From: Roseinatronobacter sp. S2 | Lineage (GTDB): Bacteria > Pseudomonadota > Alphaproteobacteria > Rhodobacterales > Rhodobacteraceae | Assembly: GCF_029581395.1 (NCBI RefSeq) | Contig: NZ_CP121116.1 | Coordinates: forward strand, 1-64,000 | DNA: 64,000 nucleotides | Reading direction: 5' to 3' | Shown: positions 5,207-10,543 of the stretch, one piece after another | Position numbering within the stretch: the stretch's first letter is position 1 | Layout: each line of letters opens with the position of its first letter | Program-made: the position numbers and the translations under genes | The notes under the pieces: generated by a model | Databases searched by the model: none | What the model was told of the DNA's origin: nothing | What the model saw: the letters and a program-made list of their open reading frames with translations, nothing else

Positions 5207-6622
5207 CTAGATATCTGCAAAAATATCCGGCGCGATTTCCTCCCAGAAGGTAAAGATTGCCTGCGCGTTCAACGCACTTGCCCAGCCCTGTCGGGCAAAA
5301 TCGGCGCGGTCCAGATCGGCCTCCAGCCGCGCCATAAAAAGCCGGTTGTCGCGGTCTTGCTGTTCGAGGTCGCGCGCGGCGGCCACGGCGCGCACCCGCG
5401 CCAGCTTGGCGGCGCGTTCGCGGCGGGCCTGCGATATCTCGGCCTCGCGCCGCGCTTCGGCGTCACGGGCGCGGGCGGCTTCCTTTTGGCGGCGCGCGGC
5501 ATCGGCCACGGCCTGCGGACTGGGCGCGGGGTTGGGCGCGTCTTGCGGGGCATAATCATTGCGCAGCGCGGCGGCCAGATACCGCACAGGGCTTTTTACA
5601 TCGCCCTGCCCTTCGACATATTCCAGCTTGCCGCGCACATGCTCTTCGCCATGCTCGGAAATCCATTGCCGCGCCAGACGGTCCGACACCCCCATGCCGA
5701 TCAGCCGCTTGTAGATCGCGCTGCTGCGCATCCCTTCGCCATCATCAATATCGAACATCGCCAGTTGCGGGTTTTCGCGGATAAGAAAGCGGATTTCACT
5801 GACCGCCCTGCCCTTGCGGCGGAATTCAGGTGTCAGGATGATGTTGGAATTCTTGTTCACCTCGGCAACGGCGGGCTTGATGATCTTGGCGTTCAGTTGC
5901 TTGAAGCTTTCATAATACGCGCTGCCATCCACCCCCATCAAACGGCGGAACAGGTCAATAGGCCACCACCCCGTAGACCCCGTTCTGATAAACCTGAAGC
6001 AGTTTTCATATAGCGCCAGCGCATGCCCGCTGGTGAAACGACGCTGGATATTCAGATTGATCAGCGCAAAAACTTTTGGGTCGTGCAGTTTTTCGGCCAG
6101 CGCGGGCGAATAGGAATATTCGCACACCCCGCCGCGCAGCCGTGCATAGGCCAGCAGCGCCGACACGCCCCATTCCTGTTCACCCTGCTCATTCAGCATA
6201 TCCCATTCCGCCAGCGTTTCGGCCAGCGAACGCAGCGCATCTTTCAGCGTGTCCATGTCGTTGGAGTTGTAGCCGATCATCAGGCACAGCGTGCGCGCAT
6301 CAATGCTGTGCTTTTGGCGCGTGATCAGGTGGTCATAGGCATTCAGCAGCAGCACATTGGACAATTTGCGCTGCAACAATGTCAGCTTGCCCGACACATG
6401 GATCGCGGCCACGTTCTTCTTGACCGACGCCTTGGCCAGCACCGCTTTCTCGCTGGGCGTTGCTGCCTGATTCCGAACTTTCGGCATTGCTGCCCTGCCT
6501 TTGCTGCGTTTTGACTGTCGCGTCCTGCCCGTGGCCATTGGCTGGCCAGCTTTTGCATGCACCATGCCGCCAAAGGAACCCACGATCAAGGAAGCAATAG
6601 GTTCCATAGGCAAGAATCGCAC
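5207..6622 (-). CDS. Plasmid replication initiator, Rep_3 (RepB) family
   Basis: A 471-residue initiator that would bind the iterons and open the origin. The Rep_3 winged-helix core begins at GKLTLLQRKLSNVLLLNAYDHL near residue 78, and SIDARTLCLMIGYNSNDMDTLKDAL and FTSGHALALYENCFRF are typical of the family. The C-terminal third, after about residue 355, is an Ala/Arg/Glu-rich stretch likely to be a long coiled coil. The start used is GTG at 6622, supported by AGGA seven bases upstream; ATG codons at 6607 and further in are alternatives. The gene diverges from parA, with the iteron origin between. The isolated iteron copy at 6630-6645 abuts the ribosome site, so Rep probably represses its own synthesis. 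Confidence 0.85.
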   Translation of the reverse strand: MRFLPMEPIASLIVGSFGGMVHAKAGQPMATGRTRQSKRSKGRAAMPKVRNQAATPSEKAVLAKASVKKNVAAIHVSGKLTLLQRKLSNVLLLNAYDHLITRQKHSIDARTLCLMIGYNSNDMDTLKDALRSLAETLAEWDMLNEQGEQEWGVSALLAYARLRGGVCEYSYSPALAEKLHDPKVFALINLNIQRRFTSGHALALYENCFRFIRTGSTGWWPIDLFRRLMGVDGSAYYESFKQLNAKIIKPAVAEVNKNSNIILTPEFRRKGRAVSEIRFLIRENPQLAMFDIDDGEGMRSSAIYKRLIGMGVSDRLARQWISEHGEEHVRGKLEYVEGQGDVKSPVRYLAAALRNDYAPQDAPNPAPSPQAVADAARRQKEAARARDAEARREAEISQARRERAAKLARVRAVAAARDLEQQDRDNRLFMARLEADLDRADFARQGWASALNAQAIFTFWEEIAPDIFADI

Positions 6623-6629
6623 ATCTCAT

Positions 6630-6645
6630 CCTGCAAACGGGTTCC
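6630..6645 (+). repeat. Isolated iteron copy at the rep start
   Basis: CCTGCAAACGGGTTCC, identical to two of the iterons at 6832-6869, sits immediately upstream of the rep GTG and overlaps its ribosome-binding region. Binding of Rep here would block its own expression, a common autoregulation in iteron plasmids. Confidence 0.7.
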
Positions 6646-6831
6646 TTAATAGGACGATTCAGGACGGTTGGGCAAAAACGCCGGGGGCAGACCGGCTTGC
6701 CGCGCCTGACTGAAGGCGCTTTTCCGACAGTATGGCGAATCAACACCGAATCGGGGCAATCTTGCCTACAAAAGGGGGCGGAAACGCGCGTATTGGCCCC
6801 CGATATGCAGGAAACATGGCCCATACACGCC

Positions 6832-6935
6832 CCTGCAAACGGGTTCCAATGCCCCTGCAAACGGGTTCCTTTACACCTGTAGGCGGGTACCGATGATCCC
6901 GTAAACAGGTCCCACTGGTCCTGTATTCAGGTGCC
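6832..6935 (+). repeat. Iteron array, five copies at exact 22-bp spacing (origin of replication)
   Basis: Five related 16-bp units start at 6832, 6854, 6876, 6898 and 6920. The first two are CCTGCAAACGGGTTCC; the others diverge stepwise (CCTGTAGGCGGGTACC, CCCGTAAACAGGTCCC, CCTGTATTCAGGTGCC). The 22-bp phase equals two helical turns, so all units present the same face. Beside a Rep_3 initiator this is the expected origin layout. Confidence 0.85.
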
Positions 6936-7135
6936 CAACTATGCGTAAGTCTTTGTATAATAACGGTTATTTTGGCACAAAGATTCTTAAAGACTCTTAT
7001 AACTCTTACAATCTTTATAGCGGCGCTTCGCGTGTGTGTTTTCTTCATTTCATGATTTTCAGAAAAACGCGAAATCGCCAGATCATCATTTCACGAAATA
7101 CCGGAATTTGGCACGCAGATCAGTCCTGAAAACAA
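6936..7135. other. AT-rich segment beside the iterons (probable unwinding region)
   Basis: The bases directly after the iterons are strikingly AT-rich in this GC-rich sequence (for example TTTGTATAATAACGG and CTTATAACTCTTACA near 6955-7010). This is where an iteron origin usually melts. No consensus DnaA box was recognised by eye. No gene is evident here. Confidence 0.5.
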
Positions 7136-7155
7136 GCTGTCCCCGCGGGGACAGC
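7136..7155. promoter_or_regulatory. parS-like palindrome, copy 1 (upstream of parA)
   Basis: GCTGTCCCCGCGGGGACAGC is a perfect 20-bp palindrome about 90 bp before parA. Its inner 18 bp recur exactly inside parA and inside parB. Perfect 14-20-bp palindromes clustered at parAB are typical ParB-binding centromeres. Confidence 0.7.
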
Positions 7156-7235
7156 GCGTAGATTCCCCAAGAAAGGTGATTGGCGTCCTGCCGTTTTCCG
7201 CGTAGATTGATGGAAAACAACGATTACCGTTTTCC
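7155..7235 (+). promoter_or_regulatory. Repeats in the parA promoter region (candidate ParA/Rep operator)
   Basis: CGCGTAGATT occurs twice (7155-7164 and 7199-7208). GGAAAAC (7212-7218) and GTTTTCC (7229-7235) form an inverted repeat with a 10-bp gap, ending 12 bp before the parA ATG. Such elements often serve autoregulation of par operons. The binding protein is not known from the sequence. Confidence 0.4.
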
Positions 7236-7247
7236 CGCAGCTAAGAA

Positions 7248-8564
7248 ATGACAGGCCACATGTTCACACATCAAGACCTCGCCGATCTTCAGGCCCAATC
7301 CTTGCGCATGCAAAGCTGGATTCGCCGGCAAACCTATTCACCTGAACATGAAAAGACCCTGCGCCGCTTTTCAAGTTGGGAATTGTCGGAACTTATTTTG
7401 CAGGTCAACCAGTCAACGCTTCGTGGAAAACTGGCCGCTGACCCGTCCCTGCCCCAAGGGCTGGTCGAAGAAGATGGCCGCCAGCGCTGGTTTTCGCTGG
7501 AAGAAATCAATGAACTGCGCCGCCGCCTTCGCATCGGGCGCAAATCGCTGATGGCCCCGCGCCCACAAGGCAAGCGCGCCTTGCGCGTGGCGATTGCCAA
7601 TTTCAAAGGGGGCGCAGGCAAATCCACCGTTGCGCTGCATTTCGCGCATGCCGCAGCCCTTGATGGCTACCGCGTTCTGGCCGTTGATTTTGACCCGCAA
7701 GCGACACTTTCGCATTCCATGGGCCTGTCCGACGTGGCCGAGGAATACACCGTCTGGGGGATCATGGCGCGCGATCTTATCCATGAAACCGAACGTATGA
7801 ACAGCTCGCTTCGTGGTGCCGAAAGCGGGTCCGCCCTGCCCCAGCGCGGCCTGCCTGCGGCAATAACCGAAATGGGCCTGTCTGATCTGCGCATCGCAGA
7901 TTTCATCAAGCCCACATGCTGGCCCACAATCGACATCATCCCGTCCTGCGCAAATGCCGCATTTGTGGAATTTGCCAGCGCGCAATACCGCCACCTGAAC
8001 CCCGAATGGTCGTTCTTTGCGGCCGTGTCGCGCTTTCTGGATTCGCTGCCGCATGACAGCTACGACATGATCCTGTTCGATTGCCCGCCCGCAATCGGCT
8101 ATCAGTCGATGAATGCGGTTTTTGCTGCGGACATGCTGTATATCCCGTCCGGCCCCGGCTATTGGGAATATGATTCAACCACCAGTTTCATCGGCCAGCT
8201 GGCCGAAGCGTTGGAGGATCTGGGGCGTTTTGGTGCAACTGTCCCCGCGGGGACAGCACGTTTGCCAAAGGAATTTCTGGATGTCCGTTTCCTGCTGACA
8301 CGGTTTGAACCGAACAATGATTTGCACCGCGCGATGGAAACAGCATTTGGAAAGGTGTTCGGCGATAGAATGGCGCAACACCCGATTGAACTGACCCGCG
8401 CGGTGGAGCAATCGGGGCGCTTCCTGTCCTCGATCTACGAGATTGATTACCGCCAGATGACACGCGAAACATGGCGGCGGGCGCGGGGGTCTTTTGATCG
8501 CGCATACGGGGAATTTCGCACCCATGCCCTAAGCGCATGGGACAAGCTGGAGGATACACCATGA
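7248..8564 (+). CDS. parA: ParA-type partition ATPase
   Basis: A 438-residue Walker-type partition ATPase. The first 100 residues form a helical DNA-binding region (ending in a MerR/HTH-like LEEINELRRRLRIGR), as in type Ia ParA. The deviant Walker A is FKGGAGKST at residues 119-127, AVDFDPQATLS follows at about 145-155, and the Walker B region is MILFDCPPAIGY. ParA drives plasmid segregation together with ParB and a centromere. The parS-like palindrome at 8239-8256 lies within the frame and encodes VPAGT. ATG 7248 has a weak ribosome site (TAAGAA); ATG 7260 is an alternative. The stop overlaps parB's start as ATGA. Confidence 0.92.
   Translation: MTGHMFTHQDLADLQAQSLRMQSWIRRQTYSPEHEKTLRRFSSWELSELILQVNQSTLRGKLAADPSLPQGLVEEDGRQRWFSLEEINELRRRLRIGRKSLMAPRPQGKRALRVAIANFKGGAGKSTVALHFAHAAALDGYRVLAVDFDPQATLSHSMGLSDVAEEYTVWGIMARDLIHETERMNSSLRGAESGSALPQRGLPAAITEMGLSDLRIADFIKPTCWPTIDIIPSCANAAFVEFASAQYRHLNPEWSFFAAVSRFLDSLPHDSYDMILFDCPPAIGYQSMNAVFAADMLYIPSGPGYWEYDSTTSFIGQLAEALEDLGRFGATVPAGTARLPKEFLDVRFLLTRFEPNNDLHRAMETAFGKVFGDRMAQHPIELTRAVEQSGRFLSSIYEIDYRQMTRETWRRARGSFDRAYGEFRTHALSAWDKLEDTP
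8239..8256. promoter_or_regulatory. parS-like palindrome, copy 2 (inside parA)
   Basis: CTGTCCCCGCGGGGACAG, an exact 18-bp copy of the core of the palindrome at 7136, lies in the parA frame and is translated as part of ATVPAGTAR. Conservation of a perfect palindrome inside a coding region points to selection on the DNA itself. Confidence 0.7.
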
Positions 8565-9637
8565 GCAAACGCCGCGTTTTCGATATCGGGTTTCCCGATG
8601 ATGCGATTGAAGCTGTCCCCGCGGGGACAGAACAGGCAAACCGCCGCAGCCCGATGGCCGCCGCCATTTCCGAGAATGCCGAAGCGCTGCGTGACCGTGC
8701 CGAGGTCGAGGCGCAAATCCGCGCCGAAAATGATGCGCTCGCGCATGAATTTGTGCGCCTGAAGAAGCTGGGCGTGGTCGTTGACATGATCGCGCTGGAC
8801 GATATCCGCGCGACAGCCCTGACGCGCGACCGCGCCATCGGGCGTGATGATGAACTTGATGAACTGAAGGACTCGATCCGCGCCATCGGGCTTTCGAACC
8901 CCATTCGCGTGGTGGCGCGCGATGACGGGTTTGATCTGGTGCAGGGGTATCGGCGGCTGGCCGCATATCGGGAACTTCTGGCCGAAACCGGCGACACCGA
9001 AAGCTGGGGGCGCATTCCCGCAGGTTTGATTCCCGCCGACGGATCGATCGAGGGGCTGTATCGCCGCATGGTCGACGAAAACATGGTCCGGCGCGATGTA
9101 TCTTTTGCCGAAATGGCGGAACTGGCGCGTGCCTATACGCTCGACCCTGAAACCACGGCCACGACACTGGATGCCGCCATCGCCACGCTTTATGCATCGG
9201 CCAACCGGCAAAAACGTATCTATATCCGCAATTTCGCGCGGATGCTGGATGCGTTGGGTGACAGCCTGCGGTATGCGCCGGAAATCCCGCGCGCGCTGGG
9301 TCTGTCGGTCTGGAAACGCATTGACCGCGAACCCGAAACCGCAGCGCGATTGCGCGGGCGGCTGGACACAGAGCCTTCGCGCAGCCCCGAGCGGGAGTTG
9401 GAAATCCTGCGCGTCTATGCCGAAACCACAACCAAACCGGAGCAGGCGGCGCAGGCCAGCCCCGCGCGCAAACCCGGCGCCAAGACCACCTTGCGCGTGG
9501 CGCATGGGTCCGAGATGGCCCAGCTTCGCGCGTCGGAAGGGCGGGTCGAATTGCGATTGCCGCGCGATTTTGCGGCGGTGGATCGTGGCAGGCTGGAACG
9601 CGCGGTGACGGCCTTTCTGTCCGCGCTGGATGACTGA
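8561..9637 (+). CDS. parB: ParB-type centromere-binding protein
   Basis: A 358-residue ParB/Spo0J-family protein. The N-terminal CTP-binding domain is seen in SIRAIGLSNPIRVV and LVQGYRRLAAYREL (the GxRRxxA box), followed by VDENMVRRDVSFAEMAELA, matching the ENxxRxDLS motif. A helix-turn-helix region and a basic C-terminal dimerisation part follow. ATG 8561 is chosen because GGAGG precedes it and it overlaps the parA stop. The parS-like palindrome at 8613-8630 falls at residues 18-23 and encodes AVPAGT, the same VPAGT pentapeptide as in ParA. It would load on the palindromes and spread. Confidence 0.92.
   Translation: MSKRRVFDIGFPDDAIEAVPAGTEQANRRSPMAAAISENAEALRDRAEVEAQIRAENDALAHEFVRLKKLGVVVDMIALDDIRATALTRDRAIGRDDELDELKDSIRAIGLSNPIRVVARDDGFDLVQGYRRLAAYRELLAETGDTESWGRIPAGLIPADGSIEGLYRRMVDENMVRRDVSFAEMAELARAYTLDPETTATTLDAAIATLYASANRQKRIYIRNFARMLDALGDSLRYAPEIPRALGLSVWKRIDREPETAARLRGRLDTEPSRSPERELEILRVYAETTTKPEQAAQASPARKPGAKTTLRVAHGSEMAQLRASEGRVELRLPRDFAAVDRGRLERAVTAFLSALDD
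8613..8630. promoter_or_regulatory. parS-like palindrome, copy 3 (inside parB)
   Basis: A third exact CTGTCCCCGCGGGGACAG, 52 bp into the parB coding region, translated as AVPAGTE. Together with the copies at 7136 and 8239 it makes a three-site cluster spread over 1.5 kb. Confidence 0.7.
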
Positions 9638-9658: not shown

Positions 9659-10543
9659 TCAGTCCAGCAAGCCCAGCTTTTCTGCCCGTTCCAGCAGCAT
9701 TTTCACAGATGACGGCTGCCAGCTGGTGCGCCCGCGCGGCGTGCGTTCGCGCATCGCTTCCAGCCGGTCGCAGATGGCTTGCAGCGTGATGTCGGGATTC
9801 GCGCCCTTGATGGCCGCCACAATCGCGGGCAGGCGGTCATCGCTGTCGCGCCGACCCGCGCGGGCCAGCACGGATTCATTCAGGAACCCGTCGCGGACAT
9901 AGGCGCGGACCGCGCGCAGCAGTCGGCTTTGCGTCCAGCGCCGCGACGGGGGCAGGGGGGCGTTGATGATGCGCAGCACATCTTCCCACGCCATATCGGG
10001 GCGCAACCGGCGCACATGCGGCACCCAGTCCTGCGCCCCCTCGTTCAGCCGTTCCATATACCCGTCCTGCCGCGCCAGCCGCACCTTGCGCAGGGCCGCC
10101 GGGTCGCGCGCCCGCAGGCCGGGATTTCCGCCAATGCGGCCTTTGGTTCGCGCACTGGCCAGCCCGGCTTTCGTGCGCTCGCGGATCAGCGCACGTTCAA
10201 ATTCCGCCGCTGCGCCCAACACCTGAAGCGTGAATTTTCCCTGCGGGGACGCGGTATCGATCGGGTCCTGAATGGAGCGGAAGAACGCGCCCTTGGCGTC
10301 CAGCCGTTCAATCACCTCCAGCAAATGCGACAGCGACCGCGCCAGCCGGTCGATGCGCACCACCACCAGCGTGTCGCCCTTGCCAACGCGTTCCAACACC
10401 CGCGCCAGCACCGGCCGCGCGCGGTTCCCGCCCGAGGCCTGTTCTTCATGAATCTCGACACAGCCCGCTGATTTCAGGGCCTGCGACTGGGGCAGGGGGG
10501 TCTGATCCTCGGTAGAGACGCGTGCATAGCCGATCAGGGGCAT
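9659..10543 (-). CDS. Serine recombinase / resolvase
   Basis: A 294-residue recombinase of the resolvase/invertase family. The catalytic serine is in IGYARVSTEDQ near residue 10, and VVVRIDRLARSLSHLLEVI carries the conserved arginines. GAAAEFERALIRERTKAGLASARTKGRIGG is the E-helix region. The C-terminal part (after about residue 150) is longer than in Tn3 resolvases and probably holds DNA-binding helices. It lies convergent to parB with a 21-bp gap. Next to rep/par the likely job is resolving plasmid multimers, although a transposon origin is possible. The AT-rich region upstream contains inverted repeats that may be its crossover site. Confidence 0.88.
   Translation of the reverse strand: MPLIGYARVSTEDQTPLPQSQALKSAGCVEIHEEQASGGNRARPVLARVLERVGKGDTLVVVRIDRLARSLSHLLEVIERLDAKGAFFRSIQDPIDTASPQGKFTLQVLGAAAEFERALIRERTKAGLASARTKGRIGGNPGLRARDPAALRKVRLARQDGYMERLNEGAQDWVPHVRRLRPDMAWEDVLRIINAPLPPSRRWTQSRLLRAVRAYVRDGFLNESVLARAGRRDSDDRLPAIVAAIKGANPDITLQAICDRLEAMRERTPRGRTSWQPSSVKMLLERAEKLGLLD

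What the first reader, a model, noticed from the sequence alone, without database searches (positions are those of the whole stretch)
7136..8630. Identical 18-bp palindrome three times across parAB, twice inside coding sequence
CTGTCCCCGCGGGGACAG occurs at 7137-7154, 8239-8256 and 8613-8630. The last two are translated in ParA and ParB as the same pentapeptide, VPAGT, although those protein regions are unrelated. Three exact copies in 1.5 kb cannot be chance. The simplest reading is a centromere (parS) whose sites are built into the genes of the proteins that use them, so ParB spreading would cover its own operon. Palindromic parS sites are known for the family; the embedded arrangement is the unusual part.
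Basis: partly seen in the sequence, partly recalled or inferred. Interest (0 to 1): 0.8.

Follow-up and report, generated by a model that had tools for sequence, protein, structure and literature searches.

The report
Plasmid centromere hidden inside partition genes
A Rhodobacterales plasmid appears to carry its "centromere" DNA sites inside the protein-coding sequence of the two genes that segregate it, a layout kept across many relatives, and some relatives also have the same sites scattered over the chromosome.

Summary
In detail: CTGTCCCCGCGGGGACAG lies at 7137-7154, 8239-8256 and 8613-8630 (3 found, 0.07 expected at up to 3 mismatches). The parS reading is well supported by comparison. 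In 79 parAB loci (window plus 78) the 12-bp core recurs at fixed places: inside the 3' part of parA in 76, inside the 5' end of parB in 45, upstream of parA in 35, downstream of parB in 55. Coding and non-coding sites share the flank base in 60 of 60 loci where both can be read. The embedded sites are the most codon-conserved windows of both genes. The flank (TG, CT, TT, GT) tracks ParB residue 216 (R, Y, P, K), first residue of a predicted recognition helix, and this held in further loci. ParB binding was not tested. Unexpected: this genome has 10 more copies on the chromosome, some relatives have dozens, and three relatives pair dispersed sites of matching specificity with a ParB lacking a ParA of this family beside it. 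That suggests Noc-like re-use of a plasmid ParB; part of the Tateyamaria copies sit in a longer repeat, so this is open. Embedded parS: new variant of a known kind.

The parts
7137..7154 (.). Candidate parS site 1: perfect 18-bp palindrome, non-coding, about 94 bp upstream of the parA start
   Evidence: a site at the equivalent upstream place in 35 of 79 loci
8239..8256 (.). Candidate parS site 2: identical 18-bp palindrome inside the 3' part of parA (encodes VPAGT)
   Evidence: a site at this place in 76 of 79 loci; most codon-conserved window of parA
8613..8630 (.). Candidate parS site 3: identical 18-bp palindrome inside the 5' end of parB (encodes VPAGT)
   Evidence: a site at this place in 45 of 79 loci; most codon-conserved window of parB
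7248..8564 (+). parA: ParA ATPase with an extra N-terminal region, RepA/SopA-like (438 aa)
   Evidence: Pfam AAA_31 1.1e-24, CbiA 2.9e-18; RepA and SopA models matched below their cut-offs
8561..9637 (+). parB: ParB-fold protein (358 aa); R216 begins the predicted recognition helix; residues 1-30 of low model confidence
   Evidence: Pfam ParB_N 1.4e-4, below its cut-off; AlphaFold model mean pLDDT 80.3; Foldseek hits to ParB, Noc, KorB
5207..6622 (-). rep: Rep_3-type replication initiator, divergent from parAB
   Evidence: Pfam Rep3_N 8.9e-19 and Rep3_C 4.7e-14
6627..6916 (.). Five 22-bp direct repeats (66-100% identical to the reference copy), four in tandem: probable iterons between rep and parA

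Best explanation
The three palindromes are ParB-binding centromere sites (parS) of the plasmid's own type I partition system. ParB probably reads the core TCCCCGCGGGGA with a conserved stretch at the start of its recognition helix (Q217-K218-R219) and the outer base pairs with residue 216. Two sites are written into parA and parB at places where the proteins tolerate a DNA-dictated pentapeptide: a region of ParA beside alignment gaps, and the probably disordered N-terminal tail of ParB. ParB clamps loaded at the upstream and intragenic sites would cover the operon, so one nucleoprotein complex would serve as centromere and probably as feedback repressor. Because reader and site are one piece of DNA, a change of specificity has to alter both together. 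Shown by comparison: conserved placement, DNA-level constraint, coupling of sites to ParB class. Inferred: ParB binding, the base-by-base recognition, clamp loading, spreading, autoregulation and partition function.
For: Placement: core with at most 1 mismatch at the parA-3' place in 76 of 79 loci, parB-5' in 45, upstream in 35, downstream in 55 (some loci are truncated contigs and count as misses). Some relatives have arrays after parB: 8 copies in Leisingera thetidis, 10 in Alloyangia pacifica, one of these with a mismatch. DNA-level selection: codon identity at synonymous positions ranks 1 of 429 windows in parA (TVPAG 0.95, median 0.54) and 1 of 353 in parB (VPAGT 0.78, median 0.51). Coupling: the majority base next to the core is the same in coding and non-coding sites in 60 of 60 loci where both were readable, 45 T and 15 G; the peptide is VPAGT or FPAGK/FPTGK/FPAGN accordingly. 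Reader: residue 216 is R in 15 of 15 TG, Y in 39 of 39 CT, P in 16 of 18 TT and K in 2 of 2 GT loci, gaps left out; it is the best class predictor in ParB, accuracy 0.97. Association: of 61 family genomes with at least 2 copies of a 14-mer form 55 have this ParB (E 1e-50), of the 234 others 23 have it (relatedness of genomes not corrected for).
Against: No binding data. Ten of 14 copies of the core in this genome are on the chromosome contig. 23 of 78 family genomes with the ParB have fewer than 2 copies of either 14-mer form; other flanks or mismatched sites were not looked for there. Six genomes with at least 2 copies lack the ParB at E 1e-50, among them G064 with 48 (the seven listed are AT-centred) and G202 with 7. 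The flank-to-residue link rests on few independent switches: at least 2 for G/T, 6 for four classes. Two TT-class loci break the residue rule. A ParA column other than those in the palindrome also predicts class fairly well (accuracy 0.89). 34 of 79 loci lack the parB-internal site, so that copy is dispensable. A few G-class loci also have a site with another flank, and a CT-class locus has one G-class site.
Confidence: 0.92

Rival explanations
1. The palindromes are operators for a transcriptional repressor (ParA with its N-terminal region, or another regulator), not a centromere.
For: One copy lies about 94 bp upstream of parA; par operons are generally autoregulated through a parS-like sequence near the promoter (passage in PMC10954446).
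Against: The commonest site is inside parA and many are inside parB or downstream, up to arrays. Site class tracks ParB residue 216; ParA is 78% identical between classes against 52% for ParB, and by the ranking used its top two class columns are those the palindrome encodes (one other ParA column has accuracy 0.89).
Confidence: 0.05
2. They are a mobile or highly iterated palindromic repeat (REP-like or a coding palindromic element) that spread through the genome and happens to sit in parAB.
For: Copies are dispersed over the chromosomes of this genome and of some relatives; two copies encode the same pentapeptide. In Tateyamaria 7 of 32 (G331) and 8 of 41 (G325) copies examined carry a shared longer asymmetric arm, and some align to each other over up to 97 and 161 bp, so part of the copies there belong to a longer repeat.
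Against: No such arm in 10 copies of this genome, 7 of G295, 18 of G063 and 7 of G247. In 34 of 46 ParB genomes every copy lies in the parB locus. 254 of 295 family genomes have no GT-class copy. Places in parAB are equivalent between loci and class-coupled.
Confidence: 0.02
3. They are RNA hairpins (terminator or attenuator) in the par transcript.
For: The upstream copy reads as terminator-like on the minus strand (1 found, 0.5 expected).
Against: Only 6900-7300 was scanned, so the intragenic copies were not tested; they are perfect palindromes without a spacer and show no T-run in the sequence. The flank base covaries with a ParB residue, which an RNA hairpin would not require.
Confidence: 0.01

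Closest known systems
ParABS type Ia plasmid partition systems and alphaproteobacterial repABC RepA/RepB/parS
   Same: ParA ATPase plus ParB-fold protein plus palindromic sites; outer or inner bases that separate groups, as the 14-bp palindromes separate repABC compatibility groups (PMC5613091, passages); parS within coding sequence near repABC is discussed for Rhodobacterales (PMC9040568, passages).
   Different: Initiator is a Rep_3 protein on the other strand, not RepC; both proteins score below the RepA/RepB model cut-offs; the core TCCCCGCGGGGA is different; sites sit at conserved codons inside parA and parB.
Bacillus subtilis Spo0J/parS (a parS inside spo0J is recalled from Lin and Grossman 1998, not seen in any call)
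   Same: A centromere site inside the gene of its own reader.
   Different: A chromosomal case; here in both genes, conserved across a plasmid family and following specificity switches.
Noc and its dispersed binding sites (PMC4331003, passages: about 70 sites)
   Same: ParB fold; in some relatives dozens of palindromic sites dispersed on the chromosome and a ParB without a ParA of this family beside it.
   Different: Rhodobacterales, plasmid-type ParB; membrane helix, terminus exclusion and division control not tested.
KorB of RK2
   Same: Foldseek match (8qa8, E 1.3e-6); plasmid ParB-type protein.
   Different: Different operator (recalled); here sites are inside the par genes.

Membership tests
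ParABS partition system | ParA-type Walker ATPase gene next to parB | tested here: met
   Pfam AAA_31 and CbiA; parA and parB overlap by 4 bp
ParABS partition system | ParB N-terminal CTPase-type fold plus helix-turn-helix | tested here: met
   Foldseek E 5.4e-8 to ParB and 2.1e-7 to Noc, low TM-scores; helices 203-210 and 216-235; Pfam ParB_N below its gathering score
ParABS partition system | palindromic sites clustered at parAB, conserved in relatives | tested here: met
ParABS partition system | site specificity tied to ParB | tested here: met
   by covariation only; few independent switches
ParABS partition system | ParB binds the site; the site gives stability and incompatibility | not testable with these tools
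   needs gel shift and plasmid-loss assays
repABC RepA/RepB | curated model cut-offs reached and repC in the same operon | tested here: not met
   TIGR03453 206.7 of 348.45 bits; TIGR03454 26.5 of 201.5 bits; the initiator is Rep_3
Noc-like dispersed system (relatives, not the window) | ParB-fold protein without ParA partner and dozens of dispersed matching sites | tested here: inconclusive
   G034, G063, G247 fit, but G063 and G247 are draft contigs, G247's gene lies beside a repABC-like repA/repB, and binding is unknown
Noc-like dispersed system (relatives, not the window) | N-terminal membrane helix and control of cell division | not tested
   -

The most novel reading that the evidence does not exclude
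In several Rhodobacterales this plasmid centromere protein has been drawn into whole-chromosome service. Chromosomes carry from about 10 to more than 90 parS-like sites of the resident ParB's specificity, and at least three times, separately on the tree, ParB has become an orphan with dispersed matching sites: a convergent, plasmid-derived Noc-like system caught at several stages (local centromere, centromere plus chromosomal sites, orphan plus dispersed sites).
Probability: 0.4. Interest if true: 0.85.

Novelty: new variant of a known kind. Interest (0 to 1): 0.62.

Why it matters
Centromere and reader written into one stretch of DNA ties plasmid specificity to its own genes, so parAB cannot be transferred without sites. 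It gives a compact natural data set (four flank classes, one candidate specificity residue) for how ParB specificity evolves. If the chromosomal copies are bound, it offers possible intermediate steps for how a plasmid ParB could turn into a chromosome-wide factor like Noc.

Tried and rejected
REP-like or mobile palindrome: considered because of the dispersed copies. Rejected for the par sites, because in 34 of 46 ParB genomes the only copies of the two 14-mer forms are in the parB locus. Not rejected for all chromosomal copies: in Tateyamaria 7 of 32 and 8 of 41 copies share a longer asymmetric arm, 4 of them among the 16 shared loci below.

Chance coding of a common peptide VPxGT: in this genome 8 of the 10 chromosomal copies can be read as VPxGT in the longest or second-longest open frame, and one lies in an Obg-like protein where VPVGT may be natural (the Obg name is recalled from the sequence, no call names it). 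Rejected as the main cause because bases outside the peptide's needs are conserved too, and some copies in relatives lie outside long open frames (for example 94-166 codons at best in L151).

Conservation of chromosomal copies: this genome against G295 (Roseinatronobacter sp. HJB301; 7 loci compared) gave 2 of 10 shared, one of them on G295's ParB contig, so weak. In Tateyamaria 16 of 31 G331 loci align to a G325 locus with the site at the same place (one alignment ends inside the site, one site differs at the centre), against 8.2% identical 14-mers elsewhere in the same alignments, binomial P 4e-10. Only 39 G325 loci known to hold a site were compared and only 31 of G331's loci, so 16 of 31 is a lower bound for sharing but not a blind test.

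Single-sequence fold of ParB (pLDDT 41.8) was useless; the alignment-based model was used. Terminator, RNA hairpin and ParA-operator readings: see rivals. Literature: the motif strings occur in 8 papers of the held library, none on bacterial partition by title. Searches for parS in coding sequence and for sites inside parB or repB, for chromosomal parS-like sites and for orphan or Noc-like ParB in Alphaproteobacteria listed nothing that I recognised as this arrangement from titles and abstracts; the listed papers were not all opened. Dolowy et al. 2005 on maintenance of P. versutus pTAV3 was seen only as a reference, is not held, and may have described the Paracoccus version.

Full report
The observation. 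The 18-mer CTGTCCCCGCGGGGACAG is present exactly at 7137-7154, 8239-8256 and 8613-8630, with no further copy in the window at up to 3 mismatches; 0.07 matches were expected and 0 of 100 shuffles had three or more. The second and third copies lie in parA (7248-8564) and parB (8561-9637) and are read in the same frame as VPAGT, ParA residues 332-336 and ParB residues 19-23. The first is about 94 bp upstream of parA. The neighbourhood is a plasmid core: a Rep_3 initiator on the minus strand, probable iterons between rep and parA, then parAB. The contig is 136.7 kb.

The genes. ParA matches ParA-type ATPase models and, below cut-off, RepA and SopA. ParB is only weakly hit by Pfam ParB_N, but its model (alignment of 32, mean pLDDT 80.3, pTM 0.44) matches ParB, Noc and KorB structures (Foldseek E from 5.4e-8; TM-scores are low, 0.2-0.4 by query length for these). 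The predicted helix pair is 203-210 and 216-235, and residues 1-30 are of low confidence, so the site-encoded peptide of ParB lies in a probably disordered tail. In ParA the site lies directly beside alignment gaps, between well conserved stretches.

Conserved placement. A scan of genome contigs with ParB returned 78 loci. Together with the window, the core TCCCCGCGGGGA (at most 1 mismatch) lies in the 3' part of parA in 76 of 79, in the 5' end of parB in 45, upstream of parA in 35 and downstream of parB in 55. Truncated contigs count as misses. Leisingera thetidis and Alloyangia pacifica plasmids have 8 and 10 copies downstream of parB.

Selection on DNA, not only on peptide. Codon identity among sequences that share the amino acid is highest of 429 five-codon windows at parA TVPAG (0.95; median 0.54; 74 sequences) and highest of 353 at parB VPAGT (0.78; median 0.51; 79 sequences, including those that lack the site). 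The outer bases fall into classes TG, CT, TT and GT (and AT in 3). The majority base next to the core agrees between coding and non-coding sites in 60 of 60 loci where both could be read; parA and parB sites agree in 42 of 44, the other 2 having an asymmetric parB site. So the peptide is VPAGT in one class and FPAGK, FPTGK or FPAGN in the others, mostly alike in both proteins.

ParB residue 216 follows the class: R 15 of 15 (TG), Y 39 of 39 (CT), P 16 of 18 (TT), K 2 of 2 (GT), gaps left out. It is the strongest single predictor in ParB (accuracy 0.97); in ParA the two top-ranked class columns are those the palindrome encodes, though another ParA column reaches accuracy 0.89. Eight of 8 plasmid records agree. 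The changes on the tree are few (2 for G/T, 6 for four classes), so this is strong correlation with limited independence.

Genome-wide. Among 295 family genomes, GTCCCCRYGGGGAC occurs in 41, TTCCCCRYGGGGAA in 39, and this ParB (E 1e-50) in 78. Genomes with at least 2 copies of one form: 55 of 61 have the ParB, against 23 of 234 others, Fisher P 4e-34 without correction for kinship. In 46 of the genomes behind the 78 loci the two forms exclude each other almost fully: 11 GT only, 33 TT only, 2 both with a single GT. In 34 of the 46 every copy lies in the fetched parB locus.

Dispersed copies. This genome has 10 GT-class copies on its chromosome contig and no TT-class copy. Four Tateyamaria genomes have 60 to 77 in all, 7 to 11 of them in the parB locus; G063 has 93, G247 65, and G034 34 of the TT class. 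In Tateyamaria at least 16 of 31 loci are shared between two genomes whose aligned regions are about 76-89% identical, but 7 of 32 and 8 of 41 copies there belong to a longer repeat. In G034 and G035 all 18 chromosomal copies looked at have the CT flank that their Y216 ParBs predict. In G034, G063 and G247 the ParB relative matches only from residue 71-74 on and has no parA of this family within the stretches read (10.5, 19 and 12 kb; G247 has a 31%-identical repA-like gene). On the tree the three are separate, though G247's branch is long and weakly placed. G063's orphan sits beside genes that look like bchO and bchD, and in Roseobacter litoralis plasmid pRLO149_94 parB borders bchO and bchD-type genes, which suggests a plasmid origin; the G063 names come from reading the sequence against that record, not from a family search. 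G202 (7 copies) and G064 (48 copies) lack this ParB at E 1e-50, against a simple rule.

Verdict. The arrangement is a new variant of ParABS. The dispersed copies and orphan ParBs are the more surprising lead and need binding data.

Papers: only search listings and found passages were seen of PMC9040568, PMC3832669, PMC9025767, PMC5613091, PMC7022226, PMC10954446, PMC13342612, PMC12704722, PMC4331003, PMC3235114 and PMC3925955. PMC10954446 reports an integrative element that exploits a plasmid parABS with its own parS-like copies; PMC12704722 reports that orphan ParBs are widespread.

Noticed in passing
window 6627-6916: Five 22-bp direct repeats, four in tandem at 22-bp spacing, between rep and parA: probable iterons of the Rep_3 initiator.
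   Followed up: partly
G000 contig C1, ten places (for example 113518, 183104, 230746): Ten copies of GTCCCCRYGGGGAC on the chromosome; 8 can be read as VPxGT in the longest or second-longest frame; no copy of the reversed control pattern.
   Followed up: partly
L322, L323, L324 (G034, G063, G247): ParB relatives without a parA of this family beside them, N-terminally divergent, in genomes with 34, 93 and 65 copies of matching class.
   Followed up: partly
L310 (G034 orphan parB): The orphan ParB still reads FPAGK near its N-terminus with the palindrome, as expected of a former plasmid parB.
   Followed up: no
L325-L339 (G034 and G035 chromosomal sites): Symmetry often extends beyond the core: 7 of 18 copies read AAACCTTCCCC(RY)GGGGAAGGTTT.
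   Followed up: no
Tateyamaria loci L223, L231, L238, L271, L284, L285, L287, L299: Some dispersed copies share a longer asymmetric arm (GACAAGCTGTTCG side), in both orientations: a repeat family carrying the site.
   Followed up: partly
G064: 48 copies of the GT-type 14-mer, the listed ones all AT-centred, in a genome without this ParB at E 1e-50; perhaps another reader.
   Followed up: no
window 9659-10543 minus: Serine-recombinase family resolvase gene directly downstream of parB (Pfam Resolvase 3e-40).
   Followed up: no
L008 against L213: A region that is chromosomal in this genome lies on the parB contig in G295 with the palindrome kept: exchange between plasmid and chromosome.
   Followed up: no
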